Source: Bacteroidales bacterium
Lineage (GTDB): Bacteria > Bacteroidota > Bacteroidia > Bacteroidales > P3
DNA: 64,000 nt
NCBI GenBank assembly: GCA_017480225.1
Contig: JAFVBB010000010.1
Location: 184,748 to 248,747, forward strand
Direction: 5' to 3'
Shown here: in pieces, positions 2,852-61,836 of the stretch
Layout of the letters: every line of letters begins with the position of its first letter
Position numbering within the stretch: the first letter of the stretch is position 1
Translations under genes and position numbers: made by a program
The notes under the pieces: model-generated
Seen by the model: only the letters and a program-made list of their open reading frames with translations
Databases searched by the model: none
Told to the model about the DNA's origin: nothing

Positions 2852-2987
2852 CAACTCCTACAAAAGTAGTACTTGACAAGGCGATGGGTAGGTGATGAGT
2901 AGGAGTTGAGTAGGAGTTGGTCTATCCTTAATGCTGATTATCAGTATCTTGTATATATAACAATTACCCCCTGCCCGTAATTTTTAT
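2852..2987 (+). repeat. Family 1 intergenic element, copy A (four 11-bp units)
   Basis: A short left arm (CAACTCCTAC, 2852-2861) is followed by exactly four head-to-tail 11-bp units at 2875-2885 (GACAAGGCGAT), 2886-2896 (GGGTAGGTGAT), 2897-2907 and 2908-2918 (both GAGTAGGAGTT), then GGTC, a short CTGATTATCAG palindrome and a TTACCCCCTGCC end. The left arm is complementary to the GTAGGAGTTG of the units, so a stem can form. It lies between the divergent lytic transglycosylase and XRE regulator genes. No reading frame runs through it. Three more copies are in this window. Confidence 0.9.
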
Positions 2988-3240
2988 ATCTGACTGATTT
3001 ACTGCGTATTGTGTAAAATACTAATATCTTGCCAATTCAGGCCCAACAAATCCACAATAACGTTTCGCCTTTGAGGCAACGCAACCAGACCTCGACCTCA
3101 AAGAAGCCTGCCGACCGTCATCGGCAGCGCCATCTGCAAAGTAGCCGCACGAAATATCGCCGCTAATGGGCTATCCCGACCCGGCACGACAAAATGTACG
3201 TCAAGGGACACGATAGGCGAACAGAAGGGAAATCCGTATG
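2988..3240. other. Non-coding stretch, no supported gene
   Basis: This part of the 1-kb divergent gap lies between repeat copy A and the regulator's operators. No open frame here has plausible codon use or a recognisable product, and no tRNA fold is apparent. Base composition changes from GC-rich to strongly AT-rich towards its right end. Confidence 0.5.
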
Positions 3241-3255
3241 TTTACATTTGTACAA
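3241..3255. promoter_or_regulatory. Candidate operator (TTTACA-TT-TGTACA)
   Basis: This is a near-perfect inverted repeat of the TTACA-N2-TGTAA type, about 400 nt upstream of the XRE regulator. It is the most distal of several related palindromes. Binding by the neighbouring regulator is inferred from proximity only. Confidence 0.45.
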
Positions 3256-3310
3256 ACAGCATGAGGGCTTACAGCACTTCATCTTTTACATTGTTACAAT
3301 TTACACATCA

Positions 3311-3324
3311 TTTACATTTGTAAA
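3311..3324. promoter_or_regulatory. Candidate operator, perfect palindrome TTTACA-TT-TGTAAA
   Basis: This is a perfect 6-2-6 palindrome. A half-matching site (ACATCTGTAA) follows at 3334-3343, and an imperfect one lies at 3284-3300. The cluster upstream of a helix-turn-helix gene suggests an operator array. Confidence 0.55.
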
Positions 3325-3555
3325 ACACCCACCACATCTGTAACGAATGTTAATTTGTGCCATTCATTACCGATATATTCATATACGGGTGGCATTATCA
3401 GTATTTTATGTAATACGAATTAAGTATTACTTAAACATATTCCCAATACTGAAGCAAAACTTACACTTAACAATATTTTCGAGTGTTAATTATTGTTTTA
3501 TAGTTATATATGTCTGTCAATTATACTATAAATCGAATAGTAGGGCCGGTTTATT

Positions 3556-3571
3556 TTTGTAAGTTTACAAA
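3556..3571. promoter_or_regulatory. Candidate operator, perfect palindrome TTTGTAA-GT-TTACAAA
   Basis: This 7-2-7 palindrome lies just upstream of the -33 element of the regulator promoter. Its half sites are those of the other operators in the opposite relative orientation. Confidence 0.55.
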
Positions 3572-3576
3572 TTTAA

Positions 3577-3608
3577 TTTGTATAGTTTTACCGAATGTTG
3601 TATCTTTG
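3577..3608 (+). promoter_or_regulatory. Bacteroidetes-type promoter of the XRE regulator
   Basis: TTTG at 3577-3580 and TATCTTTG at 3601-3608 are separated by 20 nt, a close match to the Bacteroidetes primary sigma consensus. The start codon at 3645 is 36 nt downstream of the -7 box. Palindromes flank the promoter on both sides. Confidence 0.7.
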
Positions 3609-3628
3609 TAAAACAAACAGACACGCCA

Positions 3629-3640
3629 TTACATCTGTAA
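3629..3640. promoter_or_regulatory. Candidate operator TTACA-TC-TGTAA next to the start codon
   Basis: This perfect 5-2-5 palindrome ends four bases before the ATG of the XRE regulator and just downstream of its promoter. The position suits autorepression. Confidence 0.6.
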
Positions 3641-3644
3641 GAAA

Positions 3645-4172
3645 ATGATAAACAGGATAAATCTAATTTTGAAGGCAAAAAACATCACCGCAAAACAGTT
3701 TGCCGAGGAGATTGGAATACAGCCGTCGGGCATGTCGCACATCATGGGCGGGCGCAACAACCCCAGCCTCGAGTTTGTCTCGAAGGTGCTGCGCCGCTAC
3801 CCCGAGCTTGATGCCAACTGGCTGCTGCTTGGCCGTGGCGAGATGTATGCCTCAGGCGCTGCCGCAAGTCCGGCTCCTGCCCCGCCCTCTTCGCCTGAAC
3901 CCACGCTCTTCAGCGCCGGGCCGGAAGACGGCGGCACACCAATCATTGACGAGGTGGTAAGAAATGAGGAGTATGCCCCCTCGCCTGCCCTCAACGCGGC
4001 CGTGGCTACGGCTGGCGTGACAAGCAGCCACACTGACGAAGACAGCAGCAAGCCGGCCGCAAGACCTGCGGCCACCGTCGCCCCACGCCGCGCGAAGCGC
4101 ATAATAATAATGTATGGAGACGGAACATTCAGCGAATACCTGCCGGACGGCGTGGCCGCAGACCGTCAGTAG
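3645..4172 (+). CDS. XRE-type helix-turn-helix transcriptional regulator
   Basis: This 175-residue DNA-binding protein has an N-terminal helix-turn-helix (about residues 5-60) that includes TAKQFAEEIGIQPSGMSHI and a NWLLLGRGEMY end, typical of the phage-repressor-like XRE proteins common in Bacteroidetes. The rest is a Pro/Ala-rich linker and a short basic tail ending in a YGDGTFSEYLP segment; no peptidase or ligand domain is visible. Palindromes upstream suggest that it represses its own promoter. The gene's first 60 bases are AT-rich like the upstream region. It converges on rarA, with a 7-nt overlap of the stop codons. The targets are unknown; I see no prophage genes nearby. Confidence 0.85.
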   Translation: MINRINLILKAKNITAKQFAEEIGIQPSGMSHIMGGRNNPSLEFVSKVLRRYPELDANWLLLGRGEMYASGAAASPAPAPPSSPEPTLFSAGPEDGGTPIIDEVVRNEEYAPSPALNAAVATAGVTSSHTDEDSSKPAARPAATVAPRRAKRIIIMYGDGTFSEYLPDGVAADRQ

Positions 4173-5419
4173 CCGTACTTCTCGCCCCAGCGGGCACGCA
4201 GCTGCTGGCGAGCGTCCTGCTCGCGCGGAGTGGTGCCGGGCTCGTAGAAGCGGCTGCCCTCAAGCCCCTGAGGCAGATACTCTTGCAAGGCAAAGTTGTT
4301 CTCGAAGTCGTGGGCATACTTGTAGCCCTCGCCGTAGCCCAGCCGCTTCATCAGCTTGGTAGGTGCATTGCGGATATGCAAAGGCACAGGCAGGTCACCC
4401 CACTGAGCCACTGCCTGCTCGGCATTCTTCAGGGCCATATAGGTGGCATTGCTCTTGGCGGAGCAGGCCAGGTAGCAGGCGCACTGCGACAGGTTGATGC
4501 GGCACTCAGGGTAGCCTATCTTGCTGACCGCGTCAAAGGTGGCGTTGGCAAGCAAAAGCGCGTTGGGGTTGGCGTTACCGATGTCCTCGCTGGCAAAGAT
4601 GAGCATACGCCTCGCGATGAACAGCGGGTCTTCGCCACCGGCAATCATCCTGGCCAGCCAGTAGACCGCGCCGTTGGGGTCGGAGCCCCGCATACTCTTG
4701 ATAAAGGCCGAGATGATGTCGTAGTGCATCTCGCCCTGCTTGTCGTAGTAAGCCAGGTTTTGCTGTATCACCTCGGAAGTCACGGCGTTGGTCACCTCAA
4801 CCCTGCCGCCACCGGCACGGTTGACCACCAGTTCCAGGGCGTTGAGCAGCTTGCGGGCATCGCCGCCGCTGACGCGCATCAGGGCGTCGGCCTCGCTCAC
4901 CACCACCTCGATTCCATGGGTAGAATAGTGGCGCACGGCGCTGTCGATGAGCCTGCGCATGTCGTCCTCGCCAAACTCCTTGAGCACAAACACCTGGCAC
5001 CGCGAGAGCAACGCCGAGATAACCTCAAAGGAGGGGTTCTCGGTAGTGGCGCCGATGAGGGTGATGGTGCCGCGTTCCACGGCGCCCAGCAGTGAGTCCT
5101 GCTGCGCCTTGTTGAAACGGTGTATCTCGTCGATGAAAAGGATTGCCCCCTGCTCCTGCCTGGCCTTCTCAATAACCTCGCGCACCTCTTTGACGCCGCT
5201 GCTGATGGCGCTCAATGTGTGGAACGGGCGTTGCAACGTGTTTGAGATGATGTATGCCAGTGTCGTCTTGCCAATGCCCGGCGGCCCCCAGAAAATCATT
5301 GACGGAATGTTGCCACCCTCGATAAGGGTGCGCAACGGAGCCCCCTGCCCCACCAAATGCTGCTGCCCGATGTAACCGTCGAGGGTTCGCGGGCGCAGCA
5401 ATTCGGCAAGAGGAGTCAT
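4166..5419 (-). CDS. rarA: Replication-associated recombination protein A (RarA/MgsA)
   Basis: This is an AAA+ ATPase of the clamp-loader class that acts at stalled replication forks. The 417-residue product shows Walker A GPPGIGKTT near residue 46, Walker B LFIDEIHRFNKAQQD, and the C-terminal tetramerisation region with the conserved YLPQGLEG segment. The family's N-terminal signature PLAELLRPRTLDGYIGQ supports the ATG at 5419; the open frame extends 306 nt further upstream, but that part does not resemble RarA. It follows queA by 26 nt on the same strand, so the two are probably co-transcribed. Confidence 0.95.
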   Translation of the reverse strand: MTPLAELLRPRTLDGYIGQQHLVGQGAPLRTLIEGGNIPSMIFWGPPGIGKTTLAYIISNTLQRPFHTLSAISSGVKEVREVIEKARQEQGAILFIDEIHRFNKAQQDSLLGAVERGTITLIGATTENPSFEVISALLSRCQVFVLKEFGEDDMRRLIDSAVRHYSTHGIEVVVSEADALMRVSGGDARKLLNALELVVNRAGGGRVEVTNAVTSEVIQQNLAYYDKQGEMHYDIISAFIKSMRGSDPNGAVYWLARMIAGGEDPLFIARRMLIFASEDIGNANPNALLLANATFDAVSKIGYPECRINLSQCACYLACSAKSNATYMALKNAEQAVAQWGDLPVPLHIRNAPTKLMKRLGYGEGYKYAHDFENNFALQEYLPQGLEGSRFYEPGTTPREQDARQQLRARWGEKYGY

Positions 5420-5445
5420 GGTGGTATGGGTTAGAAAGAGAAGTG

Positions 5446-6501
5446 TCAGATAATGAGCATTGCGTCGCCGTATGTAGAGAAGCGGTACTTCTCCTTTACA
5501 GCCTGCTGGTAGGTGCGCATGAGCAATTCCGGCCCGGCAAAGGCGCTGACCATAATGAACTGGCTGCTCATGGGATGGTGGAAATTGGTGACCATCATGT
5601 CGGCGATGGTGAATTCGTAGGGCGGATATATGAATTTGTTGGTCCAGCCTTCGTAGGGGCGCACAGTGCCTGGGATGGTCACCGCGCTTTCCAGCGCCCT
5701 CATGGTGGTCGTGCCAATGCAGCACACGCGGTGTCCGGTCTGCTTGGCGTGCTCGATGGCGTCGCAGGCAGCCTGGTCCACATACATCTCCTCCGCATCC
5801 ATGCGGTGCTTCGACAGGTCCTCCACCTCAATATCCTTAAACTCACCCATGCCGGTATGCAGCGTCACCTCTACCCACCTCACATCCTTGATCTCCATCC
5901 GCTTAAGCAACTCTCGGCTAAAATGCAGGCCTGCTATCGGGGCAGCAACACTGCCCTCGCGCTTTGCGTAGATTGTCTGGTAGTTCTCGGCGTCGCTCTT
6001 TTCTATGTCGCGCAGGCGGCGCAGCTCGTCAGGCAGCGGGGTGCGTCCCATCCCGCGCACTATATGTATAAACTCATCGTGAGAACCGTCGAAAAGAAAG
6101 CGTATGGTGCGTCCACGGCTGGTGGTGTTGTCCACGACCTCAGCCACAAGCGCGTCGTTGGTTCCGAAGTACAGCTTGTTGCCTATTCTTATCTTTCGCG
6201 CCGGATCGACAATGACATCCCATAGGCGCATCTCCTCGTTGAGCTCGCGCAGCAGCAGCACCTCTATGCGGGCACCTGTTTTTTCCTTCTCGCCCTCGAG
6301 CAGGGAGGGGAATACCCTGGTGTTGTTTGCCACCACAACGTCATCGGTGTCAATATACTCAATAAAATCCTTGAATTGGCGGTGCTCTATCTCGCCCGTG
6401 TCGCGATGCAACACAAGCATTCGGGCGTCATCACGGTTACGCAGCGGCTTTTCTGCTATGAGTTCCTTTGGCAGGTTGAATCTGAATTGCGAAAGTTTCA
6501 T
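5446..6501 (-). CDS. queA: S-adenosylmethionine:tRNA ribosyltransferase-isomerase
   Basis: QueA transfers and isomerises the ribosyl group of S-adenosylmethionine onto preQ1 at tRNA position 34, giving epoxyqueuosine. The 351-residue product has the family length and signatures: the N-terminal [26 protein letters not shown], and [14 protein letters not shown] near the C terminus. The start at 6501 is chosen because the QueA N terminus begins there; upstream codons in the same open frame look non-coding. It is followed at 26 nt by rarA. Confidence 0.95.
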
Positions 6502-6602
6502 TTCTTGTCTTCGGTCACTATTTCGCAATGTAACGCAACTATTTCCTTTTTGTTTTGTGCAACCGAAAAAAATGTGCCGCAGGGTTCCAACCTGCAACGA
6601 AA

Positions 6603-6635
6603 GAGCCCACCGCCACAACCAGCGGCAATGGGCTC
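6603..6635 (-). terminator. Hairpin terminator after the ECF sigma operon
   Basis: Complementary arms GAGCCCACCGCCAC and GCGGCAATGGGCTC form a stem with two or three wobbles. Read on the minus strand, it follows the lipoprotein stop codon and runs into TTTCGTTGC, so it is a modest intrinsic terminator ahead of queA. Confidence 0.55.
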
Positions 6636-6663
6636 ATAGGTTTGGCACCGACCGTTTTACTTT

Positions 6664-7857
6664 CTACAGACGCTTCTCGACGAACAAAATCGCGCTCCAT
6701 TCGTCCACGTCGTCGATGCCAAAGACCGGCATGTAGGCGAGGATGCCTATCTGGCTGCCTTCACGATAGACGCTGCGGAACTGTGCCGATGTCGTGGCGG
6801 CACGCCACAGGTAGCGTAGCAGTATGTCGGCTGAGAGGTCGTCTATGGCCACCTCATCCTCTATCGAGCGCAACTCGCCTATCGTGCAGTTGATGCCATA
6901 GAACATGTTCGCGCCTGGAAAGTCGACTTTTGAAAGTTGCGTGGCGAAGTCGGTCTCAAACATAGGATAGGCAATATGGCTTCCACCCATCCACGACGAG
7001 ACAGCGCTGAATATGGTGTCGCCCGTCGGGTTGTACACAACATGCATTCCCCTGTTGCCGTCCTCATCGTCTACTATTGCGAAGGGCATGGCTGTGTTGA
7101 GGTTGTCCACACCCACCAGGGTGTCTATATGCACACCGCAGGCCTGCATAGTCATCAAGTTCACCTTCAGCTGCATAACTACACCTGTTGCCTCCTCTTC
7201 CACCTCGATGGCCAGAAAGCTCTTGCCGCTGGCGTCGCTCAGGCTTGATACGCTGCCGCAAAGGGTCACCGTGTCGCCGACAATGTGCTCCAGGCCGCGA
7301 AGGGTGACCGTTGGGTTGTCAGCCCACAAAAGGCTGCCGTGGTTGTAGATGAGCAGCGTGGTGTCGGCATTGACGCGCAGGGCATAGACCAGTCCGGGCA
7401 GGGGCACATCGCCCATTGCCGGATTGTCGGCCACAGTGACCACACCTGTGTAGCAACCATAGCTCTGCACGGCCGCCGCGGCATAGGCCCTGCCGCTGTA
7501 GGTGCCGCTCTGCTTGTCGAAGGTTATCGTCACCGTCTTGCCTTCCATCTCTTTCTTCTTCATCCATTCCTTCATCTTCTCGCGGTCCTTGGTGACGAGG
7601 GTCTCTTCCTTCTTTGAGGCGTGCTTGGTGAGGTCGCTGTTGTCGGCATTGCGGAACTGCACCACACTGCCGCTCTCAGCGTAGGAGCAAAGGTTGTCGA
7701 GCATGTCGTCCCACTGCTGCTCGGTAGTGAGGGTGACCGATGAGATCTTGCTGTCGACAGCGTAGACTATTGTGCGGTCAACCTCCTTCTCGTCGTGGCA
7801 GCCCGCCAAGGCGAGCAGCAGTCCCAGCAGCATGGTTGTTCTCAAGAAATGTTTCAT
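6664..7857 (-). CDS. Secreted lipoprotein of unknown function (ECF sigma operon)
   Basis: I do not recognise a family for this 397-residue product. It starts with a lipoprotein signal peptide (hydrophobic LLLGLLLA, lipobox LAGC) and has no later membrane segment, so it is an envelope lipoprotein. The body appears to be beta-rich and may contain repeated strand blocks around residues 40-130 and 140-240. The ATG at 7857 is chosen for the signal peptide. It is the last gene of a tight operon (sigma factor, small membrane protein, secreted protein, this gene), 11 nt after its neighbour, which suggests a role in the response that the sigma factor controls. Confidence 0.75.
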   Translation of the reverse strand: MKHFLRTTMLLGLLLALAGCHDEKEVDRTIVYAVDSKISSVTLTTEQQWDDMLDNLCSYAESGSVVQFRNADNSDLTKHASKKEETLVTKDREKMKEWMKKKEMEGKTVTITFDKQSGTYSGRAYAAAAVQSYGCYTGVVTVADNPAMGDVPLPGLVYALRVNADTTLLIYNHGSLLWADNPTVTLRGLEHIVGDTVTLCGSVSSLSDASGKSFLAIEVEEEATGVVMQLKVNLMTMQACGVHIDTLVGVDNLNTAMPFAIVDDEDGNRGMHVVYNPTGDTIFSAVSSWMGGSHIAYPMFETDFATQLSKVDFPGANMFYGINCTIGELRSIEDEVAIDDLSADILLRYLWRAATTSAQFRSVYREGSQIGILAYMPVFGIDDVDEWSAILFVEKRL

Positions 7858-7868
7858 CTCCGTAGTTG

Positions 7869-8273
7869 TTATTTGTTGTCTATTTTGTTCATTTGGAAAT
7901 CGGCCAGCGCGTCGTACTGCCGCCTGTCGGTCAGCATGTAGAAGCACAGGGTGCGCCGCTCGTGCGAGGCAACGGCCTTGCGGCAGGGCTTGCCGTCCCA
8001 CCGTTTGCGCGTGGCAGGCTGGGCGGCGTCGCCCAGCCACGAGGTCACCCCTTCGCGGCCGCGTATGTTGTGCTCGGCGCAGAGCTTGTCCCATGCCTTG
8101 TCGTCGTCGGCCACCAGGATGAGCACATCTACCTTCACGCTGTCGTTCAGCCTGAAGCCGCTCACCTCGGCCACCGTCAGGTTGTCGCGTCCGGCATAGT
8201 GCCTGTAGAGCGCACTTTGAGCCGAGGCGACAAGGGGCAGCAGCGCCAGCAGTATGAGAGCAAAGCGTTTCAT
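7869..8273 (-). CDS. Small secreted protein of unknown function (ECF sigma operon)
   Basis: This 134-residue protein has a clear signal peptide (KRFALILLALLPLVASA) and a short soluble domain with no family I can name. The segment KVDVLILVADDDKAWDKLCAEHNI looks like an alpha/beta core, and there are two Cys in the mature part (near PCRKAV and LCFYML). Its start overlaps the stop of the upstream gene by 4 nt (ATGA type), so translation is probably coupled. Context suggests an exported effector of the sigma-factor operon. Confidence 0.7.
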   Translation of the reverse strand: MKRFALILLALLPLVASAQSALYRHYAGRDNLTVAEVSGFRLNDSVKVDVLILVADDDKAWDKLCAEHNIRGREGVTSWLGDAAQPATRKRWDGKPCRKAVASHERRTLCFYMLTDRRQYDALADFQMNKIDNK

Positions 8274-8554
8274 ATGGCCTGTATCGTTAGCATCTCACCG
8301 GCCACCTGCGCCCAGTAGGCGTCGCTTTGGCCATCACGATTGCAGTACACCTTGTCGAAGTCCTGAGCCGACTTGGAGTGCATCATGGGCAGGGCCACCC
8401 CCGCCACCAGCAGCAGGGCCGCCACCCCGAGCGAAGCCCGCGCCGTGACCCGCCTGCGCTGCAGCCACGAGGGGTACTCCCTGGCCATCTTCTCGCCGTA
8501 GCGGCCAGCCTCAGCCATCTGCCACAACTGTTCGAATTTGTCTTCCTCTATCAT
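8270..8554 (-). CDS. Small single-pass membrane protein, possible anti-sigma factor
   Basis: The product has 94 residues: a charged cytosolic N-terminal half (about residues 1-37), one membrane helix around 40-58 (LGVAALLLVAGVALPMM) and a short C-terminal part. It overlaps the upstream ECF sigma gene by 4 nt and the downstream gene by 4 nt. The position directly after an ECF sigma gene and the topology fit a small anti-sigma protein, but no zinc-binding HxxxCxxC motif is visible, so the role is inferred from context. Confidence 0.65.
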   Translation of the reverse strand: MIEEDKFEQLWQMAEAGRYGEKMAREYPSWLQRRRVTARASLGVAALLLVAGVALPMMHSKSAQDFDKVYCNRDGQSDAYWAQVAGEMLTIQAI

Positions 8555-9129: not shown

Positions 9130-9175
9130 TGAAAGGTATTGGCAGTGTGGGCACTATGGCCACACGGCTGCTTGA

Positions 9176-11301: not shown

Positions 11302-11403
11302 CTTTTTATCTTTTTTTATGATAATTCGCCTCCTGGCGAACCACCCCCGCAGGCAGCCCCACGGCCGCATCATCAACCAGTCATGCACATGCCTTCACCT
11401 GCC

Positions 11404-11540
11404 CAACTCCTACCAAAGCAGGTGCTGATTAGGCGATGGGTAGGAGTTGAGTAGGAGATGAGTAGGAGTTGGTCTGTCCTCATGGCTGATTTACAGCTAT
11501 TTGCATATTACTCTCTTACCCCCTGCCGACAATTTTTATA
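11404..11540 (+). repeat. Family 1 intergenic element, copy B (four 11-bp units)
   Basis: The left arm CAACTCCTAC (11404-11413) precedes four units at 11427-11437 (GATTAGGCGAT), 11438-11448 (GGGTAGGAGTT), 11449-11459 (GAGTAGGAGAT) and 11460-11470 (GAGTAGGAGTT). Then come GGTC, GCTGATTTACAGC and TTACCCCCTGCC. It lies between the divergent M13 peptidase and valS genes. The remainder of this roughly 490-nt gap holds the peptidase promoter on the left and a short GC-rich hairpin near 11580-11600; I see no gene in it. Confidence 0.92.
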
Positions 11541-24584: not shown

Positions 24585-24707
24585 GCAGGGGGCAAATCCT
24601 TAATCTGAAAAGGACTGTAAATCAACCATAAAGCAAGACCAACTCCTACTCAACTCCTACTCATCGCCTACCCAACACTTAGTCATGCACTACTCTAGTA
24701 GGAGATG
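24585..24707 (-). repeat. Family 1 intergenic element, copy C (reverse orientation)
   Basis: Read on the minus strand, CATCTCCTAC (24707-24698) precedes four 11-bp units ending at 24641: GACTAAGTGTT, GGGTAGGCGAT and two GAGTAGGAGTT. GGTC, TTGATTTACAG and GCCCCCTGC follow. It is the only copy in this orientation and lies between the divergent rpmE2 and pfkA genes. The rest of the roughly 565-nt gap holds the rpmE2 promoter and, at 24802-24813, a GCGCACAATAAA motif ahead of pfkA. Confidence 0.9.
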
Positions 24708-24877
24708 ACAAGATGAAGAGCAGTACTTGACAAGTATTTCACCTTGCCTTGACAGCGCTTTGGCAGGCGGCACTGAGCGGGGCGGAAATCATTTTGGCAC
24801 GGCGCACAATAAACCCGGCACAGCGGCGTTGTAAGGGCTGCTAACCGGAATTGACAAACATACACAACTAAACAATC

Positions 24878-41052: not shown

Positions 41053-41145
41053 TGTTCTCCGATTGATGTCCGATTGTTCTTCGATTGTTCTCCGATACAA
41101 AATCGAAGAACAATCGAAGAACAATCGGAGAACAATCGAAGAACA
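41053..41145. repeat. Family 2 element, copy 1 (inverted arrays, 4 + 4 units of 11 bp)
   Basis: The left array has four units (TGTTCTCCGAT, TGATGTCCGAT, TGTTCTTCGAT, TGTTCTCCGAT), then a 5-nt spacer ACAAA, then the right array of ATCGAAGAACA twice, ATCGGAGAACA and ATCGAAGAACA. The arrays are complementary, giving a 44-bp stem with a few mismatches. A tail of about 75 nt (to about 41222) is also partly shared with copy 2. It lies between the divergent zinc-ribbon and chromate transporter genes. The rest of this gap of about 460 nt has no gene. Confidence 0.93.
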
Positions 41146-41293
41146 GACGGCGTTGACATTAACCTGATGCTTTTTCTGCCTGGCTTTCAGCATGTTGCAG
41201 GAATTAACAATCATAACTTACTCTAAATGAAGCATCAAGCCGATTTTTGAGGCGTGGGTGTAATAACCCAGGGTGGGCGGGCGTTAGTGGTGC

Positions 41294-46040: not shown

Positions 46041-46133
46041 TGTTCTCCGATTGATGTCCGATTGTTCTTCGATTGTTCTCCGATACAAAATCGAAGAACA
46101 ATCGAAGAACAATCGGAGAACAATCGAAGAACA
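46041..46133. repeat. Family 2 element, copy 2 (inverted arrays, 4 + 4 units of 11 bp)
   Basis: All 93 bases are identical to copy 1: four TGTTCTCCGAT-type units, the ACAAA spacer and four ATCGAAGAACA-type units. A diverged tail to about 46210 continues the similarity (starting GACGG and including CTGATGC and TTTTCTG). It lies between the divergent DUF1232 and SDR genes. The rest of the gap, about 420 nt in all, holds the two promoters and no gene. Confidence 0.93.
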
Positions 46134-46332
46134 GACGGCCTTGACACGGGCCTGATGCCTTTTCTGACTGGTTCTGAATGGGTTGCAAAAACTCAACACT
46201 CATAACCACCTATCAATCAGCCTCTCAGCATCACCACCCTGCGCCCCTATCCTCCCCCGCTCCGCGGCGGGCGTCGCGGCTGGAAAAAAGCAGCCTTCCG
46301 CACATCACCCTGCCGGTGACGGTTTTTTTGCG

Positions 46333-51925: not shown

Positions 51926-52018
51926 TGTTCTGCGATTGATGTCCGACTGTTCTCCGATTGTTCTTCGATTGCTAATCGAAGAACAATCGAAGAACAATCG
52001 GAGAACAATCGAAGAACA
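51926..52018. repeat. Family 2 element, copy 3 (inverted arrays, 4 + 4 units of 11 bp)
   Basis: The left array is TGTTCTGCGAT, TGATGTCCGAC, TGTTCTCCGAT, TGTTCTTCGAT; the spacer is TGCTA; the right array is identical to copies 1 and 2. Unit number, unit length and the 5-nt spacer length are kept although left units and spacer have changed. It lies upstream of the alkylation repair gene and after the nitroreductase stop, both on the minus strand. The tail of copies 1 and 2 is not clearly present. Confidence 0.92.
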
Positions 52019-54511: not shown

Positions 54512-56605
54512 ATGACCGAGACCAATCCGCAACTTGAGCTGGCACGGCGCTATGTGGAGCGCACCGGCACCAGCCTCTTCCTCACCGGCAAGGCCGGGAC
54601 GGGCAAGACCACGTTCCTGCGCCAGCTTGACGAGCAGTGCCCCAAGCGGCACATCGTGGTGGCCCCGACTGGGGTAGCCGCCGTCAACGCGCGCGGCGTG
54701 ACGATACACTCGTTCTTCCAGCTGCCCTTCGACCCGTACCTTCCCGATGTGAAAGAGCTGGTGACCGAATACCAGATGCCCAGCCGCCACCTCAAGGTGA
54801 GCAAGAACAAACTGTCGATAATGCGCTCGCTGGAGCTGCTCATCATCGATGAAATATCGATGGTGCGCGCCGACCTGCTCGACGCCGTCGACATGACGCT
54901 GCGCCGCGCGCGCCACTCGGAGCTGCCCTTTGGAGGGGTGCAGCTGCTGATGGTGGGCGACGTGCACCAGCTGGCGCCGGTGGTGACAGAGCGCGAGCAA
55001 CCCTACATGAACCAGGTCTACCCCTCGCCGTTCTTCTTCAACAGCAAGGCGCTGCGGCGCATGAGGTACGTCACAATAGAGCTCACCACCGTCTACCGCC
55101 AGCAGGACGAGGCGTTCGTGAGGATGCTCAACACCGTGCGCGACGGCAACATCGACGCCCCCACCCTGGAGGCGCTCAACAGCCGGGTGGGCGCGGGCGG
55201 CAGCGACCCGACGATAATCACGCTCACAACCCACAACCACCAGGCCGACACCATCAACCGCGCACGGATGCTGGCGCTTGAAGGCGAGAGCCGCACGGTG
55301 GAGGCCACGGTGCAGGGCAACTTCCCTGAGTCGATGTATCCTGTGGAGGCCAAGATGACGCTGAAGGTGGGCGAGCGGGTGATGTTCACGAAGAACGACT
55401 CGTCAGGGCGCCACGCCTACTACAACGGCAAGCTGGGCACGGTGAGCGGCTTCGACGACGACGGCAATGTGATCGTGGACTGCGACGACGGCGACAGCGT
55501 GACCGCGACCCGCGAGTCGTGGGAAAACATGAAATACACCGTCAACAACCGCACCAACACCATAGAGCAGAAGGTTGACGGCTCGTTCATGCAGTTCCCG
55601 CTACGCCCCGCCTGGGCGGTGACCATACACAAGGCGCAGGGACTCACCTTTGATCGCGTGCGCATCAATGCGTCAGAAGCCTTCGCCTATGGGCAGGTAT
55701 ATGTAGCCTTGAGCCGCTGCCGCACACTGGAGGGGCTGTCGCTCATCTCGCCAATCACCCCCGGCACAGCCTTTTCCGACAGCGACGTGCAGCAGTTCTG
55801 TGCGGCGCAGCCCACCTTCGAGCAGTCTTCAGCCGCGGTAGGCAACGCTGAGCGGCAATACTACTACGAGCAGCTGGCGGAACTGTTTGGGGCACATGGA
55901 CTGGCCGACGGAGCCGAGCGGCTGGCCGATGCCTTTGGCAAAATGGCGGAGATATTTCCGAGGCAGTACCAGGCGATGCAGCAGTTGAAGAGCACGGCCG
56001 GCGCGCTTGCGTCGGTGGGCGAGAAGTTCATGAGCCAGTTGCTGCAGCTCGACCAGTCGCAGCACGCGGAGCGCATAGCCAAGGCCGCCGACTACTATGC
56101 CGCTCAGCTGGCTTCGATGGCAGGGCTGCTGCGACAGGCCGGCACCGTCGAGGTAGACAACAAAGAGACCGAAGCCAGGCTTAGCGACGCGAGGACAACG
56201 CTGGCCGAGCGGCTGCACGTGAAGCAGTCGTGCATACAGAGCGTCAGGGAGCATGGCTTCGACGTGCGCCTTGTGCAGGAGGCCAAATTGGCAAAACCCG
56301 CAAAGACACCGAAGAAAGCGGCCGAGCGCCACAAGGTGGAGGTACAGTACACTGAACCCAGCCATTCTTCCGAAGAGCTGGAAACCCTGCTTTCAGCATG
56401 GCGCAAGGCAAAGGCCGAGCAGATGAACGTGCCAGCATTCGTGGTGCTTCACCAAAAGACACTGGTGGCCGTGGCCTCCGCCATGCCGCGCACCACAGAG
56501 CAACTGCTGCGTGTGCCCGGCATGGGCCGCAAGAAGACAGAGACCCTGGGAGCAGAGCTGCTTACTATTATCAACGCATATCTGGAAAGCCAGGGTCTGC
56601 AATAA
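54512..56605 (+). CDS. PIF1-like DNA helicase with C-terminal HRDC domain
   Basis: This is a superfamily 1B helicase of 697 residues. Motif I is LTGKAGTGKTTFL, motif Ia APTGVAAVNA with TIHSFF, motif II LIIDEISMV, motif III VGDVHQLAPV, motif IV VYRQQDEAF, and late motifs AVTIHKAQGLTFDRV and YVALSRCR. After about residue 450 come helical regions (possible helix-turn-helix near 560-600, TLAERLHVKQSCIQSV) and an HRDC nucleic-acid-binding domain in the last 80 residues (SEELETLLSAWRKAKAEQM, LLRVPGMGRKKTETLG). The ATG at 54512 is chosen. It likely acts in DNA repair or replication and shares a transcript with nadE. Confidence 0.92.
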   Translation: MTETNPQLELARRYVERTGTSLFLTGKAGTGKTTFLRQLDEQCPKRHIVVAPTGVAAVNARGVTIHSFFQLPFDPYLPDVKELVTEYQMPSRHLKVSKNKLSIMRSLELLIIDEISMVRADLLDAVDMTLRRARHSELPFGGVQLLMVGDVHQLAPVVTEREQPYMNQVYPSPFFFNSKALRRMRYVTIELTTVYRQQDEAFVRMLNTVRDGNIDAPTLEALNSRVGAGGSDPTIITLTTHNHQADTINRARMLALEGESRTVEATVQGNFPESMYPVEAKMTLKVGERVMFTKNDSSGRHAYYNGKLGTVSGFDDDGNVIVDCDDGDSVTATRESWENMKYTVNNRTNTIEQKVDGSFMQFPLRPAWAVTIHKAQGLTFDRVRINASEAFAYGQVYVALSRCRTLEGLSLISPITPGTAFSDSDVQQFCAAQPTFEQSSAAVGNAERQYYYEQLAELFGAHGLADGAERLADAFGKMAEIFPRQYQAMQQLKSTAGALASVGEKFMSQLLQLDQSQHAERIAKAADYYAAQLASMAGLLRQAGTVEVDNKETEARLSDARTTLAERLHVKQSCIQSVREHGFDVRLVQEAKLAKPAKTPKKAAERHKVEVQYTEPSHSSEELETLLSAWRKAKAEQMNVPAFVVLHQKTLVAVASAMPRTTEQLLRVPGMGRKKTETLGAELLTIINAYLESQGLQ

Positions 56606-56634
56606 TTCCGACCGACAATCACACAACAACATCT

Positions 56635-57243
56635 ATGGACAAGTTAAGTTACGCCCTCGGCCACAACATTGGCCACCAACTGACAGGCATGGGCTTGAAA
56701 GACAGCCTCGCAATAGACGACTACATGGCAGGCATTACCGACGTGCTGCGCGGCGACAGCCCCAAAATGAGCGTCGAGGAGGTGCACCAGGTGCTGGAGG
56801 AGTTCTTCAACAACCTGGAAAAGAGACAGCAACAGGAGGCCGCCGAGCGCGGCAAGGCGGCTCGCGAGGACGGCGAGCGCTTCCTGGCGCAGAATGCCAG
56901 TCGCAAAGGAGTCACCGTCACCGCCAGCGGACTGCAATATGAGGTCATCACCGAAGGCCATGGGCGCAGTCCGAAAGCCACAGACACCGTAAGATGCCAC
57001 TATGAAGGCACCCTCACCGACGGCACGGTGTTCGACTCAAGCTACCGCCGCGGTCAGCCCGCCGAGTTCGGTCTGCAACAGGTGATAGCAGGCTGGACGG
57101 AAGGCGTGCAACTGATGAAAGAGGGCGCAAAATACCGCTTTTTCATACCCTGGCAGCTGGCCTACGGCGAGCGGGGCGCGGGACAGGCCATACCCCCATA
57201 TTCGGCACTGGTATTCACTGTGGAACTGATCAAAGTGCTTTGA
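56635..57243 (+). CDS. FKBP-type peptidyl-prolyl cis-trans isomerase
   Basis: This proline isomerase of 202 residues has an N-terminal FkpA/Mip-type helical dimerisation part (about 1-85: LSYALGHNIGHQL, VLEEFFNNLEKRQQQEAAERGKA) and a C-terminal FKBP domain with VRCHYEGTLTDGTVFDSSY, VIAGWTEGVQLMKEGAKYRFFIPWQLAYG and IPPYSALVFTVELI. No signal peptide is evident from the ATG at 56635, so it is probably cytosolic, unlike many Mip-type relatives. It lies 29 nt after the helicase gene. Confidence 0.93.
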   Translation: MDKLSYALGHNIGHQLTGMGLKDSLAIDDYMAGITDVLRGDSPKMSVEEVHQVLEEFFNNLEKRQQQEAAERGKAAREDGERFLAQNASRKGVTVTASGLQYEVITEGHGRSPKATDTVRCHYEGTLTDGTVFDSSYRRGQPAEFGLQQVIAGWTEGVQLMKEGAKYRFFIPWQLAYGERGAGQAIPPYSALVFTVELIKVL

Positions 57244-57246
57244 CCG

Positions 57247-58179
57247 ATGAAGATAGTATGCGTGGAGCCGCTGGGCATCAGCGGCGAGAGGTTCAGGTCG
57301 CTGCAAGCCCACTACAAGGCCATGGGGCACAGTCTGGACTACTACATGGACCGCCGCGAGGACGAGGATTCGCTTGCCGACCGTATGCGCGAGGCCGACA
57401 TTGCGGTAATCAGCAACATCAGGCTGACGCGCACCGTGCTCTCACAGTGTACGCGGCTTAGGTACATCAGCGTGGCCTTCACCGGGCTTGACCACATAAA
57501 TCTCGACTACTGCGCCGAGCGTGGCATAGAGGTGCAGAACGCCGCAGGCTACAGCACCACCGCCGTGAGCGAGCTGGCGCTGGCACTGATGCTCGACCTG
57601 CTGCGCGGTGTCACCATGACCGACGGCGGCATACGGCACGGCGGCTCGCGCGGGACAATGCTCGGCGGCGAGCTGCGCGGGCGCACGGTGGGCATAGTCG
57701 GAACCGGAGCCATTGGCACCGCCACCGCACGGCTGGCGCTGGCCTTCGGAGCAAAGGTAGTGGCCTACAGCCGCACCGAGCGCGACGAGGTGAGGTCGAT
57801 GGGCGTGGAATACATGCCGCTCGCACAGCTTCTTCGCCAGGCCGACATTGTGAGCCTACACGTGCCGTTGTGCGAGGCCACGCGTGGACTTATCGGCAAG
57901 GAAGAGTTGCTGGCAATGAAACCCACCGCCCTGCTGGTCAACACTGCCCGTGGACCAGTGTGCGACATCGAGGCCGTGGCAGCCGCCCTGCGCGACGGCA
58001 CGCTTGCCGGTGCGGCATTCGATGTGTTCGAGCACGAGCCTCCGCTCGACGCAAACCACCCGCTGCTGTCGGCGCCTCGCTGCATCTGCACACCCCACAT
58101 AGCCTTCGCCACCGAGGAGAGCTTCGAGGCTCGCGCAGCCATAGTGTTCGGCCACGTGGACGACTACCTGCTGAACTGA
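57247..58179 (+). CDS. D-2-hydroxyacid dehydrogenase
   Basis: This NAD-dependent oxidoreductase of 310 residues belongs to the D-isomer 2-hydroxyacid dehydrogenases (glycerate/hydroxypyruvate reductase-like branch). The dinucleotide motif is GIVGTGAIGTATA, and the catalytic Arg lies in NTARGPV, Glu in DVFEHEPPL and His in TPHIAF. Substrate-side residues do not let me distinguish D-lactate, glycerate or phosphoglycerate. It starts 3 nt after the FKBP stop and converges on the glycosyltransferase gene, with a 16-nt overlap. Confidence 0.9.
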   Translation: MKIVCVEPLGISGERFRSLQAHYKAMGHSLDYYMDRREDEDSLADRMREADIAVISNIRLTRTVLSQCTRLRYISVAFTGLDHINLDYCAERGIEVQNAAGYSTTAVSELALALMLDLLRGVTMTDGGIRHGGSRGTMLGGELRGRTVGIVGTGAIGTATARLALAFGAKVVAYSRTERDEVRSMGVEYMPLAQLLRQADIVSLHVPLCEATRGLIGKEELLAMKPTALLVNTARGPVCDIEAVAAALRDGTLAGAAFDVFEHEPPLDANHPLLSAPRCICTPHIAFATEESFEARAAIVFGHVDDYLLN

Positions 58180-59180
58180 CCCTTGAGGTCGGAGAAACGG
58201 CGGCGGCGCAGCAGGTAATATTCCGGCAGCAGCCATCCGCCATAGATTTGCGGCACCGTCATGGTGCCGTTTTTCATACGCTTTTCGTCAAGACGGCCGC
58301 GACGGTTGCGGAACTCACGGTGAGCCTTGCGCACAGCTCTGTACTCGCCCACATGACCCTCCATCAGGAACTTCACAGCCGCCACCCTGTCCAGCCACAT
58401 GCGCAGCGCCAGCACCCTGCCGCGGCGTCCGGCAGGCAGGTTCTTGTAGAGCATGGAGAGGTTGTTGCGGAAATTGAGCTCGGTCTTGAAAGGCGACGAT
58501 TTGGGCAGTGTGCCGCCGCCCACGTGGTACACCCGCGACGACGGACAGTAGCGCACACGGTAGCCCGCCAGCATCACCCGCCAGCAGAAATCGATTTCCT
58601 CCATGTGGGCGAAGAAGTCGCCGTCCAGGCCGCCAACCTCGCGCCACACATCGGAACGCACAAACATGCAGGCCCCGGTGGCCCAGAAGATGTCGCGCTC
58701 GTCGTCGTACTGGCCGCTGTCTTTCTCGAGCGTAGAGAACAGGCGTCCGCGGCAGAAGGGGTATCCGTAGCGGTCGATGAAGCCTCCTGCGCCACCGGCA
58801 TATTCGAAGGTGTCCTTGCAGTCGTACATCATCAGCTTTGGCTGTGCCACGGCCACGCGCGGCTCGCACTCCATCATGTCCACCACCGGTTCTATCCAGC
58901 CCGGCGTGCACTCCACGTCGCTGTTGAGCAGCACGTAGTAGTCGGCCTCCACCTGCCGCAGAGCCAGGTTGTAGCCCTCGGCAAAGCCGTGGTTCTTGTC
59001 CAACGCCACCACACGCACTCCCGGAAACTCCGAGGCCAGCAGGTCGAGGCTGCCGTCGGTGGAACCATTGTCGGCCACCACCACCTCGGCGTCGCCGCTG
59101 CAGTCAATCACCGACGGCAGGAAGCGGCGCAGCATGTCGCGTCCGTTCCAGTTTAGGATAACCACCGCCACATGCCTCAT
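58164..59180 (-). CDS. Glycosyltransferase family 2
   Basis: This is a nucleotide-sugar-dependent transferase of 338 residues with a GT-A fold. The N terminus VAVVILNWNGRDMLRRFLPSV is followed by VADNGSTDGS, LLNSDVECTPGW (the DxD-like metal site), WATGACMFVRSDV and FFAHMEEIDFCWR, typical of rhamnosyl- or related GT2 enzymes in O-antigen or exopolysaccharide synthesis. No membrane helix is evident. It overlaps the upstream acyltransferase gene by 4 nt, suggesting a joint role in lipopolysaccharide assembly. Confidence 0.92.
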   Translation of the reverse strand: MRHVAVVILNWNGRDMLRRFLPSVIDCSGDAEVVVADNGSTDGSLDLLASEFPGVRVVALDKNHGFAEGYNLALRQVEADYYVLLNSDVECTPGWIEPVVDMMECEPRVAVAQPKLMMYDCKDTFEYAGGAGGFIDRYGYPFCRGRLFSTLEKDSGQYDDERDIFWATGACMFVRSDVWREVGGLDGDFFAHMEEIDFCWRVMLAGYRVRYCPSSRVYHVGGGTLPKSSPFKTELNFRNNLSMLYKNLPAGRRGRVLALRMWLDRVAAVKFLMEGHVGEYRAVRKAHREFRNRRGRLDEKRMKNGTMTVPQIYGGWLLPEYYLLRRRRFSDLKGQFSR

Positions 59181-60028
59181 TTCTCTATGATTTTAATTGT
59201 TCCGTCCTTCTGTATGCGGCCGTTGCGGGTCAGTTTCCAGCGCTGGTGGCTCCACAGCCAGTGCTCCGGGCGCTCGGCCACGAGCCGCTCCAGCCTGCGC
59301 GCGTAGGCCTCAACAATCGAGTATTGAGCAGCCTCCTGCGGGCGCTCACAGAGAGGCTCGAAGGTCACGTCGTAGTAGCCGCGCCGCGTGCGCCTGACGG
59401 TGTAGAACAGCACCGGGTAGTTGTATTTGCGGGCAAAATACTCTATGCCGTAGAGGAACGCCGTGTCGCGGCCCAGGAACTGCGTCCAGTAGCTGCGATG
59501 GGGGTTGCTGGGACTTTGGTCGCCAAGCATCATCAGCGCCACCGGCACGTGGCAGCGGTCGTAGAATGCCACGTGCTGCCTCACGTCGGTCTGGTCGACC
59601 ACCTGTGTGCCGTAGCGCGTGCGCCGACGTCCGATAAAAGAGGCTGTGGCCTTGTCGTTGAGCGGTTTGCCCACCCCTATGCCGTGGTGAAGCACCTGCA
59701 TGTTGAGCGAGGTCACCATGTACTCCCAGTTGCCGTAGTGCGCCGAGGCAATAATCACCGACTGCCCACGCTCGTAATAGCGGTCGAGCACTTGGCGGTT
59801 GGTGAAGCGGTAGTGCCGCTTGAGGAAAGGCGGCGTGGCGAAAAGTACGTTGTACGCGCCTTCCACCAGCAGGTCGCACAGGTGCAGGTAGTAGCGCCGC
59901 TCCATGGCACGGAGCTCGTCCTTGCCGCGTTGCGGGAAGCACTTTTCGAGGTTGTCGCGCACCACAGCGCGTCGATAGCGGGCTATGTGGTAGACGAAAA
60001 GGTAGAGTATGTCGGCCAGCAGACGCAT
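59177..60028 (-). CDS. Lipid A biosynthesis-type lauroyl/palmitoyl acyltransferase (LpxL/HtrB family)
   Basis: This inner-membrane acyltransferase of 283 residues adds a secondary acyl chain to lipid A or a related lipid. The HxxxxE catalytic motif is SAHYGNWEYM; the N-terminal YRRAVVRDNLEKCFP and the later LGDQSP and FLGRDTAFLYGIEYFARKY are typical of LpxL/HtrB relatives. The first 20 residues are hydrophobic and can anchor it. It follows the GWxTD gene by 21 nt and precedes the glycosyltransferase. Confidence 0.9.
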   Translation of the reverse strand: MRLLADILYLFVYHIARYRRAVVRDNLEKCFPQRGKDELRAMERRYYLHLCDLLVEGAYNVLFATPPFLKRHYRFTNRQVLDRYYERGQSVIIASAHYGNWEYMVTSLNMQVLHHGIGVGKPLNDKATASFIGRRRTRYGTQVVDQTDVRQHVAFYDRCHVPVALMMLGDQSPSNPHRSYWTQFLGRDTAFLYGIEYFARKYNYPVLFYTVRRTRRGYYDVTFEPLCERPQEAAQYSIVEAYARRLERLVAERPEHWLWSHQRWKLTRNGRIQKDGTIKIIEK

Positions 60029-60049
60029 AGCGCTTGAGGGTCAGGGCGG

Positions 60050-61564
60050 TTAGTAGCCGCGTTCAAACTGCGCCCCCACCGCGCCCACAACGCCCTCGGG
60101 CACCTGGTTGTTGCTCAGCCGGCGCTCCCAGCCGTACTCCTGCCGCTCGCCGCGGGCGTTGCTGTTGAGCAGTGTGTAGTAGCCGGAGCGGAACTGGTCC
60201 CAGAAGAGGAAGACGCGGTTCTTGTCGTCGCCCAATATCTGGTTGTAGCGCCACAGCTGGTAGGGCAAGTAGAAAGCCTGGTTGGGCGAGCCGTCGCCAG
60301 TCCTTTCAATCTTGTTGCCGATGTCGGTCATCGAGCCCGCGTTGTACATGTTGCCCTGTGCGTGGCCCATCACGGCGAAGTTCTTCTCGTCGCGGATGTA
60401 GTCGGGCGGGCCGTACTGCAGGTACACCCTCCCGCGGTCGGTCATGATGCCGCGCGTCATCGGGAAGCTGAAGTGCTCCTGCACGTAGTCTATGCGCTCC
60501 TTGTAGGCCAGCCATTTCGACTCGGCGTTGAGCCTGTCGCGGCTCACCCAGAAGTTGTACAGGAAGGCCTGCTTGGCCTCAACGCCGGGATGCCCAGCCA
60601 CCTCGCGCGCGCTGCGCCGCTCCTGCTCGCTGGCTATCGGGTAGAGAGCGTCGAGGTAGAGGTTCAGCTCGGCCTCGTCGGTGTAACGACCCACGAAGGT
60701 GGTGGCGAAGTCGCTGATGCCCATCGGCTTCACGCCAGGGTTGGAGCGGAAGAACGGAAGGCGGCGGAAGAGCATCGTCTGGCCGTCGCGGTTGCGCAGC
60801 TCGACCACGAGGTTGTAGTTGCCCGACGGCAGCTCGCTGATGTCCACGCTGCCCAGCACCGGCACCGTGGCCGCGGGCGTCTTGCGCGAGGCGCGCTGCG
60901 TCGTCTCCACGCGGAAGCCCGTCTCGCGCTCCTCGACGTAGGCCATGGCCACGAAAGCGTCGCCGCCAACCTCGCGGTCAATGTTGTACACCTCGTAGTA
61001 GTAGTTCAGCTCGGACATGCTCTCGGGTATGAAGTCGTCGATGTAGGGCTCCAGGTCGTAGCCTCCGCGCGAGATCATGCCCTGCCTTGTGGTGGGCTTC
61101 ACCGAGGCGATGAGCTGCAGGTTCGACAGCGCGGGCTGGTTCCTGTCGTAGGCCACCACCACCTTCTCGTTGACCACCAGCGGCTTGGAATCGGTGCCGA
61201 GGTCACGCATGGAGATGTCGAGGTCGTAGATGCCGTTTTGCGCCGCGAAGCGCTGCACGTCGAGGATGTTGAACCCCACCGAGTCGGGCGAGGGCACAAC
61301 CGGGGTGGACAGGGTGTACTTCTTCACGAAGCACACCGAGTCGGCCTGCCGCAGCAGCAGCGTCACCTCGGCCTCGGCCTTGTAGCCGCCGCCCGGCTGC
61401 TCGGCGAACTGCATGGTCCACGCGTCGAAAAGCAGCCGCGTCTCCACATACGGCGTGTTGTCCGACGTGCGGAAGAAAGTGCCATAGTCGAACATCGCCT
61501 GCATCTGCGCCCAGGCTCCGCCGCACAGCGTCAGGGCCACGATGGCCATAATAGTCCTTCTCAT
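60050..61564 (-). CDS. GWxTD domain-containing exported protein
   Basis: This 504-residue protein has a signal peptide (IMAIVALTLCGGAWA) and beta-rich N-terminal domains. The C-terminal part matches the GWxTD domain family, with the conserved block TDRGRVYLQYGPPDYIRDE and a following region ending in WRY and FLFWDQ. Such proteins are widespread in Bacteroidetes and of unknown function. The ATG at 61564 is chosen for the signal peptide; the frame extends further upstream. On the minus strand a GCGCACAATAATTCG motif (61615-61601) lies about 40 nt upstream. It heads an operon with an acyltransferase and a glycosyltransferase. Confidence 0.85.
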   Translation of the reverse strand: MRRTIMAIVALTLCGGAWAQMQAMFDYGTFFRTSDNTPYVETRLLFDAWTMQFAEQPGGGYKAEAEVTLLLRQADSVCFVKKYTLSTPVVPSPDSVGFNILDVQRFAAQNGIYDLDISMRDLGTDSKPLVVNEKVVVAYDRNQPALSNLQLIASVKPTTRQGMISRGGYDLEPYIDDFIPESMSELNYYYEVYNIDREVGGDAFVAMAYVEERETGFRVETTQRASRKTPAATVPVLGSVDISELPSGNYNLVVELRNRDGQTMLFRRLPFFRSNPGVKPMGISDFATTFVGRYTDEAELNLYLDALYPIASEQERRSAREVAGHPGVEAKQAFLYNFWVSRDRLNAESKWLAYKERIDYVQEHFSFPMTRGIMTDRGRVYLQYGPPDYIRDEKNFAVMGHAQGNMYNAGSMTDIGNKIERTGDGSPNQAFYLPYQLWRYNQILGDDKNRVFLFWDQFRSGYYTLLNSNARGERQEYGWERRLSNNQVPEGVVGAVGAQFERGY

Positions 61565-61701
61565 CGCTTTGTTGTTTTGCCATGCAAACGCGCGCCGCGC
61601 CGAATTATTGTGCGCACGGCTCACATATTTTGGCCCGTGCCGCCCCGGCCGGGGTGAGAACGCCGCGTCAATCACTGATGAAATACTGCCCAAGAACTAC
61701 C

Positions 61702-61836
61702 CATCTCCTACTCATGCAGGTGTTGATTAGTAGTTGATTAGTAGTTGAGTAGGAGTTGAGTAGGAGTTGGTCTATACTTAATGCTGATTTACAGCGGTTT
61801 GCACACTTGTATTTTACCCCCTGCCTCTGTTTTTCG
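61702..61836 (+). repeat. Family 1 intergenic element, copy D (four 11-bp units)
   Basis: The left arm CATCTCCTAC is followed by units at 61725-61735 and 61736-61746 (both GATTAGTAGTT), then 61747-61757 and 61758-61768 (both GAGTAGGAGTT), then GGTC, GCTGATTTACAGC and TTACCCCCTGCC. It lies between the divergent GWxTD and moxR genes. The rest of the roughly 465-nt gap, from 61840 to 62030, shows no gene. Confidence 0.92.

What the first reader, a model, noticed from the sequence alone, without database searches (positions are those of the whole stretch)
2852..61836. Family 1: four dispersed elements, each with exactly four 11-bp units
Copies at 2852-2987 (+), 11404-11540 (+), 24585-24707 (-) and 61702-61836 (+) share one plan: a short CAACTCCTAC-like left arm, four head-to-tail 11-bp units in perfect phase, GGTC, a CTGATTTACAG-like palindrome and a CCCCCTGC end. 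Units 3 and 4 are almost always GAGTAGGAGTT; units 1 and 2 vary (GACAAGGCGAT, GATTAGGCGAT, GACTAAGTGTT, GATTAGTAGTT; then GGGTAGGTGAT, GGGTAGGAGTT, GGGTAGGCGAT, GATTAGTAGTT). The fixed number of four and the decay from one end differ from ordinary microsatellites, whose copy number drifts. I know of no named repeat family with this structure.
Basis: seen in the sequence. Interest (0 to 1): 0.85.

Follow-up and report, generated by a model that had tools for sequence, protein, structure and literature searches.

The report
Eleven-base repeat arrays between genes
This rumen-type bacterium carries well over a hundred and fifty copies of two kinds of short intergenic DNA element built from 11-base units in exact register, which look like multi-part docking sites for an unknown DNA-binding protein that were spread as non-coding mobile DNA.

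Summary
The four copies are real. In each, the 'left arm' is itself an array of at least four 11-bp units in inverted orientation, facing five right-hand units of which the innermost is degenerate. I found 56 copies in the genome: 54 with five right units, one with six, one with four. The same window holds a second family (F2: TGTTCTTCGAT / ATCGAAGAACA) on the same plan; 111 distinct copies were read, 92 of them 4+4, all with a 5-bp centre. Arrays with other unit sequences occur in many sampled congeners; 65 other Bacteroidales loci show only background.

No placed copy lies in a predicted gene. F1 copies differ freely at many positions but are nearly invariant in the last two units plus GGT. 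A search blind to that core listed no core-less copy. F1 folds little better than shuffles and its arms do not covary clearly; F2 folds very stably. The shared property is the 11-bp register of the double helix, so multi-protomer DNA binding is my best explanation. In one relative such an array lies in a dispersed 425-bp element with one sharp end, so MITE-like spread is likely. The protein and any function are unknown.

The parts
2809..2974 (+). F1 copy 1, L0 to CCCCCTGC
   Evidence: ends are soft, set where conservation fades over 55 copies
2820..2863 (+). F1 copy 1, left array L1-L4 (inverted 11-bp units)
2864..2918 (+). F1 copy 1, right array R1-R5
2934..2944 (+). F1 copy 1, CTGATTATCAG palindrome
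11361..11526 (+). F1 copy 2
11372..11415 (+). F1 copy 2, left array L1-L4
11416..11470 (+). F1 copy 2, right array R1-R5
11486..11496 (+). F1 copy 2, CTGATTTACAG palindrome
24585..24750 (-). F1 copy 3
24696..24739 (-). F1 copy 3, left array L1-L4
24641..24695 (-). F1 copy 3, right array R1-R5
61659..61824 (+). F1 copy 4
61670..61713 (+). F1 copy 4, left array L1-L4
61714..61768 (+). F1 copy 4, right array R1-R5
41053..41145 (+). F2 copy a: 4 units, 5 bp, 4 inverted units
46041..46133 (+). F2 copy b: 4 + 5 bp + 4
51926..52018 (+). F2 copy c: 4 + 5 bp + 4
41146..41236 (+). F2 copy a, right module (GACGG...CTGGCTTTCAG...CATAA)
46134..46224 (+). F2 copy b, right module

Best explanation
F1 and F2 are two families of non-coding dispersed elements, on one plan, whose working part is a double-stranded DNA platform for a repeated DNA-binding protein. 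Each 11-bp unit (about one helical turn) is one protomer site. Protomers bind side by side on one face of the helix as two inverted rows meeting at a 4-5 bp centre (F2: 4+4; F1: five right units and at least four left), next to a palindrome at fixed distance. An assembly of set size explains the fixed unit number and register. Shown: architecture, copy numbers, register, uneven conservation, position outside predicted genes. Inferred: protein binding and assembly. Also inferred: spread as non-autonomous mobile elements (a related element in one congener has one sharp end), tolerated or kept upstream of transcription units.
For: Family-blind signal at period 11 in the window. F1 unit logo G-A-N-W-A-G-N-N-G-W-T in right units and, reverse-complemented, in left ones; position 10 of the right units and its partner in the left arm are almost only A or T, either way round, as would fit contact with the duplex (the reading is inference). 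Consensus symmetry at the centre without clear covariation between arms: paired fraction .526 observed against .513 expected at that axis. Many columns are as random as the flanks while R4-GGT carries 28 changes in 1375 sites, 17 of them at one A/T column. A model of L0-R3 only finds the 56 known copies, and all 150 rows listed fall on them: no core-less copies among these. F2 copies found through the right module alone: the centre varies while the inner arms are nearly invariant in 80 rows; 92 of 111 are 4+4 and 111 of 111 have a 5-bp centre. Precedent: CarH tetramers bind tandem 11-bp direct repeats, strict and degenerate, three or four per operator (PMC9304148, passages). Spread: seven loci in G012 begin at the same terminal palindrome; arrays of different sequences upstream of moxR in 12 of 29 relatives at the looser threshold.
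Against: No binding protein found and no binding or expression data. No functional theme among the 25 most frequent families of 94 neighbouring proteins. F2 folds into a very stable hairpin (z about -12.5), which a duplex platform does not need. Other families in the genus have up to about 13 same-direction units, so a fixed number is not universal. Low variation in F2 arms could come from recent spread or gene conversion. Of four F1-like G012 sites with a flank orthologous to an F1 site here, only one (L281) has the orthologous copy as its most similar of 55, and narrowly so in reverse (47 against 45 of 66 bases). F1 and F2 have no sharp ends, and no target duplication could be defined.
Confidence: 0.5

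Rival explanations
1. Purely selfish MITE-like repeats: a transposase recognises the array, copies burst from several sources, and low variation reflects recent spread and gene conversion, with no present role.
For: Turnover of unit sequences between congeners; dispersed 425-bp element with a sharp left end in G012; different families beside the same genes; no functional theme; F2 also lies in 13 convergent spacers.
Against: F1 copies are saturated at many columns yet the core is nearly invariant, and no decayed copies were listed. No terminal inverted repeats, target duplications or parent transposase seen for F1 or F2, though transposases other than Y1 were not sought.
Confidence: 0.28
2. 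Operators of a dedicated global regulator (CarH-like logic): F1 and F2 are the regulons of two related transcription factors.
For: Position outside predicted genes, mostly 90 bp or more from start codons; fixed geometry; 34 of 52 placeable F1 copies in divergent spacers.
Against: Neighbours show no common function; orientation toward genes is mixed, 10:7 in F1 tandem spacers and 4:12 in a 31-copy F2 sample; distances vary; orthologous genes do not consistently carry the same family.
Confidence: 0.12
3. RNA or single-stranded DNA hairpins (structured RNA, terminator, attC- or REP-like).
For: The three F2 copies of the window are near-perfect palindromes folding at -41 to -49 kcal/mol as DNA, z about -12.5.
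Against: The four F1 copies on the same plan fold little better than shuffles, z -0.6 to -1.9, with no clear covariation over 55 copies; no Rfam match in the window; no Y1 transposase in the held genome.
Confidence: 0.07
4. Ordinary minisatellites made by slippage.
For: Some relatives' arrays have 8-13 same-direction units; 19 of 111 F2 copies differ by one whole unit.
Against: F1 and F2 keep number, inverted plan, centre length and flanking modules over 56 and 111 sites.
Confidence: 0.03

Closest known systems
BrickBuilt and other tandem-repeat MITEs of Porphyromonas gingivalis (PMC4596501; abstract and passages seen)
   Same: Bacteroidales; intergenic, dispersed, tandem repeats with non-repeat flanking parts; non-coding.
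   Different: 23-nt direct repeats in variable number, 19 copies, small terminal inverted repeats most like those of ISPg1 and ISPg9; here 11-bp units, inverted arrays, near-fixed number, no terminal inverted repeats seen, 56 and at least 111 copies.
CarH/CarA operators (PMC9304148; passages seen)
   Same: Tandem 11-bp direct repeats, strict and degenerate, three or four per operator, bound on one face of the DNA.
   Different: Operators of carotenoid genes; consensus nnnnTnnACAn is not seen in the unit consensus here; not a dispersed repeat and no inverted second array of the same kind (as far as the passages show).
ParR/parC of plasmid R1 (recalled; search listing only)
   Same: Arrays of 11-bp iterons bound by a repeated DNA-binding protein (recalled).
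   Different: One plasmid centromere, direct repeats, not dispersed (recalled).
REP/BIME elements with RAYT transposases (recalled)
   Same: Many short intergenic imperfect palindromes per genome (recalled).
   Different: No 11-bp arrays (recalled); no Y1 transposase in this genome.
TAACTGA direct repeats of Beggiatoaceae (PMC4679880; abstract seen)
   Same: 169 sets of short intergenic direct repeats of unknown function in one genome; also in five Bacteroidetes.
   Different: [quoted passage not shown] no inverted arrays described in the abstract beyond one indirect repeat.

Membership tests
MITE (non-autonomous DNA transposon) | short, non-coding, many dispersed intergenic copies | tested here: met
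MITE (non-autonomous DNA transposon) | terminal inverted repeats and sharp ends | tested here: not met
   F1 and F2 conservation fades at both ends; a related G012 element has a sharp left end
MITE (non-autonomous DNA transposon) | target site duplication | tested here: inconclusive
   none evident by eye at three G012 copies; F1 and F2 ends too soft to test
MITE (non-autonomous DNA transposon) | parent transposase with the same ends | not tested
   only Y1_Tnp was sought in the genome
REP/RAYT | Y1 (RAYT) transposase in the genome | tested here: not met
   PF01797: 0 matches in the held genome, 97.6% complete; control found it in 5 of 14 genomes
BrickBuilt | 23-nt unit in variable number, leader and tail | tested here: not met
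   11-bp unit in near-fixed number
CarH-type operator | tandem 11-bp direct repeats in phase | tested here: met
CarH-type operator | consensus nnnnTnnACAn | tested here: not met
   unit logos, compared by eye with the consensus quoted in PMC9304148
CarH-type operator | cognate MerR/B12 protein binds | not testable with these tools
   needs binding data
Structured RNA family | match to a curated covariance model | tested here: not met
   window only, gathering thresholds
Structured RNA family | compensatory changes across copies | tested here: not met
   F1 only: mean z 0.2; a few single pairs up to z 2.4; not tested for F2
Minisatellite | unit number spread by slippage | tested here: not met
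   54 of 56 F1 and 92 of 111 F2 at the modal number

The most novel reading that the evidence does not exclude
A genus-wide, sequence-specific chromosome-organising system: dedicated proteins polymerise in a set number on 11-bp unit arrays placed between transcription units, and the unit sequence of the copies in a genome shifts together as the protein's specificity changes, so that each species has its own code on one architecture.
Probability: 0.2. Interest if true: 0.85.

Novelty: new variant of a known kind. Interest (0 to 1): 0.6.

Why it matters
If the arrays are bound as proposed, a 2-Mb genome carries well over 150 nucleoprotein sites on one plan, about one per 12 kb, outside predicted genes, with unit sequences that differ between species on a similar geometry: a natural series for studying how a protein and over a hundred sites change specificity together. 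If they are only mobile, they are a MITE type recognised by its 11-bp array rather than by terminal repeats, which searches for terminal inverted repeats would miss.

Tried and rejected
Covariation between F1 arms: no clear signal. REP/RAYT: no Y1 transposase. Exact 26-mer in genome contigs: 0 stretches, with the tool's warning that records of this or a very near genome may be left out. The 23-mer in viral contigs: one contig (L265), where short tandem copies lie at a gene junction; not pursued as related. F2 pattern in viral contigs: 0. F1 against plasmids and F2 against phages: no match; F1 against phages and F2 against plasmids were not run.

A looser period scan (22 of 33) was less selective: on 29 valS loci period 9 gave 12 regions and period 11 gave 8, and some hits were masked stretches or A-rich DNA, such as L253. 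In the stricter scan period 7 also gave 25 regions in the 15 genus loci, so period 11 is distinctive against periods 10, 12 and 13 and against other Bacteroidales (22 regions in 270 kb versus 5 in 1.2 Mb), not against every period; some of the 22 are two arms of one element and a few look AT-rich.

Position conservation with G012 was judged inconclusive: the own-genome loci compared were not a random sample (52 chosen for F1, 30 for F2, plus the window), and of four F1-like sites only L281 had the orthologous copy as most similar of 55; for L269 and L282 the alignment register is doubtful. I first took F2 arm spacings as varying copy number; one search showed mostly 4+4. Divergent enrichment of F1 is strong against all window gene pairs (Fisher p 1e-7) but not against the 17 window spacers over 100 bp (p 0.25). 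Literature searches listed no description of these arrays in the held open-access library; that does not show they are unpublished.
Full report
What is there. The four copies exist as stated. Lined up on the last unit, each has five right-hand 11-bp units R1-R5 (R1 degenerate, R4-R5 mostly GAGTAGGAGTT), then GGTC, a CTGATTTACAG-like palindrome starting 15 bases after R5, and a CCCCCTGC stretch. To the left lies an inverted array of at least four units (L1-L4, pattern AWCNNCTNNTC), with weaker conservation one unit further out (L0).

Census of F1. The window's genome (G000, 2.05 Mb, 22 contigs) has 88 exact GAGTAGGAGTTG matches against 1 for the reversed control. I read 55 copies by a script that required R5 and GG, plus L052, which has GAT for GGT. 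Because that script could bias the result, I built a sequence model from L0-R3 only and searched the genome. All 150 rows listed fall on these 56 copies and all 56 are found (recount); one of them, at C11:229968, matches only model positions 30-86. The search scored 150 of 481 first-look candidates and left its weakest rows unlisted, so strongly decayed copies could still exist. Right-unit number: 54 with five, L071 six, L052 four.

Constraint. Mean pairwise identity over 55 copies: flanks .27-.30, L0-L3 .51-.58, L4 .72, R1 .58, R2 .69, R3 .78, R4 .94, R5 .99, GGT 1.00, next 12 bases .58, palindrome .75. Several interior columns are as random as the flanks, yet R4-GGT has 28 changes in 1375 sites, 17 at a single A/T column. 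That pattern is easiest to explain by constraint on each copy in place; gene conversion is not excluded. Unit position 10 is almost only A or T; the A/T state of R3 and R4 is strongly coupled (32 A-T, 16 T-A, 6 T-T, 1 A-A), which may reflect two subfamilies.

The second family. F2 in the same window (41053, 46041, 51926) has the same plan: four units, 5-bp centre, four inverted units, then a module containing CTGGTTTTCAG. The first 31 F2 rows came from top BLAST matches and the window, hence biased; I therefore built a model of the right module alone from 29 of them, which gave 144 rows including partial and opposite-strand ones, with 150 of 873 candidates scored, and fetched 80 further stretches. 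Of 113 rows two are duplicates: 111 distinct elements, 92 with 4+4, 11 with 3+4 or 4+3, 8 with 4+5 or 5+4, and a 5-bp centre in all (the finder allowed 0-12 and preferred 5 on ties). At least three model hits were not fetched, so 111 is a minimum. In the 80 module-found rows the inner arms are nearly invariant except a purine at unit position 5; the second left unit has a variant form, the outermost units vary more, and the centre varies.

Position. Genes were called with a simple codon-usage script, not a standard gene finder. F1: 34 divergent, 17 tandem, 1 convergent, 3 contig edge, 0 in genes, of 55; L052 was not placed. F2: 40, 56, 13, 4 and 0 of 113 rows including the two duplicates. Distances to start codons are mostly 90 bp or more; exceptions include 13 bp for one F1 copy and 4 of 136 F2 distances under 60. 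In the window 6 of 8 divergent spacers hold an element. F1 is more divergent-biased than F2 (p 0.0007, duplicates included). Orientation is mixed. Ninety-four neighbouring proteins show no theme in the 25 most frequent families.

Relatives. The closest named relatives are mostly ruminant-gut Bacteroidales, including 'bacterium P3', now Candidatus Hemicellulosilyticus sp. P3; a contig of the same length as P3's (212,730) stands among the same-genus genomes (G030), so P3 probably belongs to the genus. F1-like 23-mers (up to 3 mismatches) occur in 8 of 36 congeners and in none of 24 other genomes of the order; the reversed control gave one match in each of two congeners. A family-blind scan of 15 genus loci (270 kb) finds 22 period-11 regions against 0-1 at periods 10, 12 and 13 but 25 at period 7; 65 other Bacteroidales loci (1.2 Mb) show 5 at period 11. 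Unit sequences differ widely: TTGTCCAGTTG 4+4, TGTGCTATATA arrays, and direct arrays of up to about 13 units. Upstream of moxR, 12 of 29 relatives' loci have period-11 regions at the looser threshold, of different sequences and distances; in the rows shown (its output was cut), spacers with an array are mostly longer than those without, with exceptions such as L249 and L262.

Mobility. In G012 a 425-bp non-coding element carrying an array of CTCCGACTCAA-like units is repeated, four loci at 91-97% identity, and seven loci begin at the same terminal palindrome. Its right end is less clear and I saw no target duplication. It is absent from G000 at that search's threshold. Four F1-like sites of G012 have a flank orthologous to that of an F1 site in G000; three other G012 sites with such a flank hold a different family. 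Only for L281 is the orthologous own copy (L082) the most similar of 55, and in reverse L281 leads the seven G012 copies compared only narrowly (47 against 45 of 66 bases). Vertical descent is thus possible for one pair and undecided for the rest.

Structure. As DNA, the three F2 copies of the window fold at -41 to -49 kcal/mol (z about -12.5), whereas the four F1 copies are close to shuffles (z -0.6 to -1.9). F1 arms pair at the consensus level but with little covariation. What both families share is helical register, not hairpin strength.

Interpretation. CarH shows that tandem 11-bp repeats, strict and degenerate, can be read by side-by-side protomers on one face of the DNA (PMC9304148, passages); F1 and F2 fail the CarH consensus and are not filed as CarH operators. 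BrickBuilt (PMC4596501, abstract and passages) is the nearest described repeat in the order that I found and differs in unit, number and ends. I therefore rate a mobile-derived, multi-protomer DNA-binding platform as most likely (0.5), a purely selfish repeat next (0.28). The binding protein, the means of spread and any benefit to the cell are not shown.

Noticed in passing
window 41053-41145, 46041-46133, 51926-52018: Second family (F2) on the same plan with a different unit; at least 111 copies genome-wide; the window copies are near-perfect long palindromes.
   Followed up: yes
L278:2476-2899 (G012) and copies L267, L276, L277: A 425-bp dispersed non-coding element with a sharp left palindrome TTAGGTCGCGCACGACCTAA and an 11-bp array inside; truncated and array-only matches exist.
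   Followed up: partly
L276:2985-4340: AAA_14/DUF4143 ATPase gene lying between pieces of the G012 repeat.
   Followed up: no
L168:400-1730: Three arrays within 1.3 kb, one inverted and one of about 13 direct units like GGGGCATCGCA, with a repeated downstream stretch.
   Followed up: no
15 genus loci L155-L169: Period-7 regions are also more frequent here (25 in 270 kb) than in other Bacteroidales loci (30 in 1.2 Mb).
   Followed up: no
F1 units R3 and R4, 55 copies: Near-exclusive coupling of the A/T state at position 10 of neighbouring units (48 of 55 copies opposite).
   Followed up: partly
L265:7940-8215: A viral contig carries short GAGTTGAGTAG tandem copies at a gene junction.
   Followed up: no
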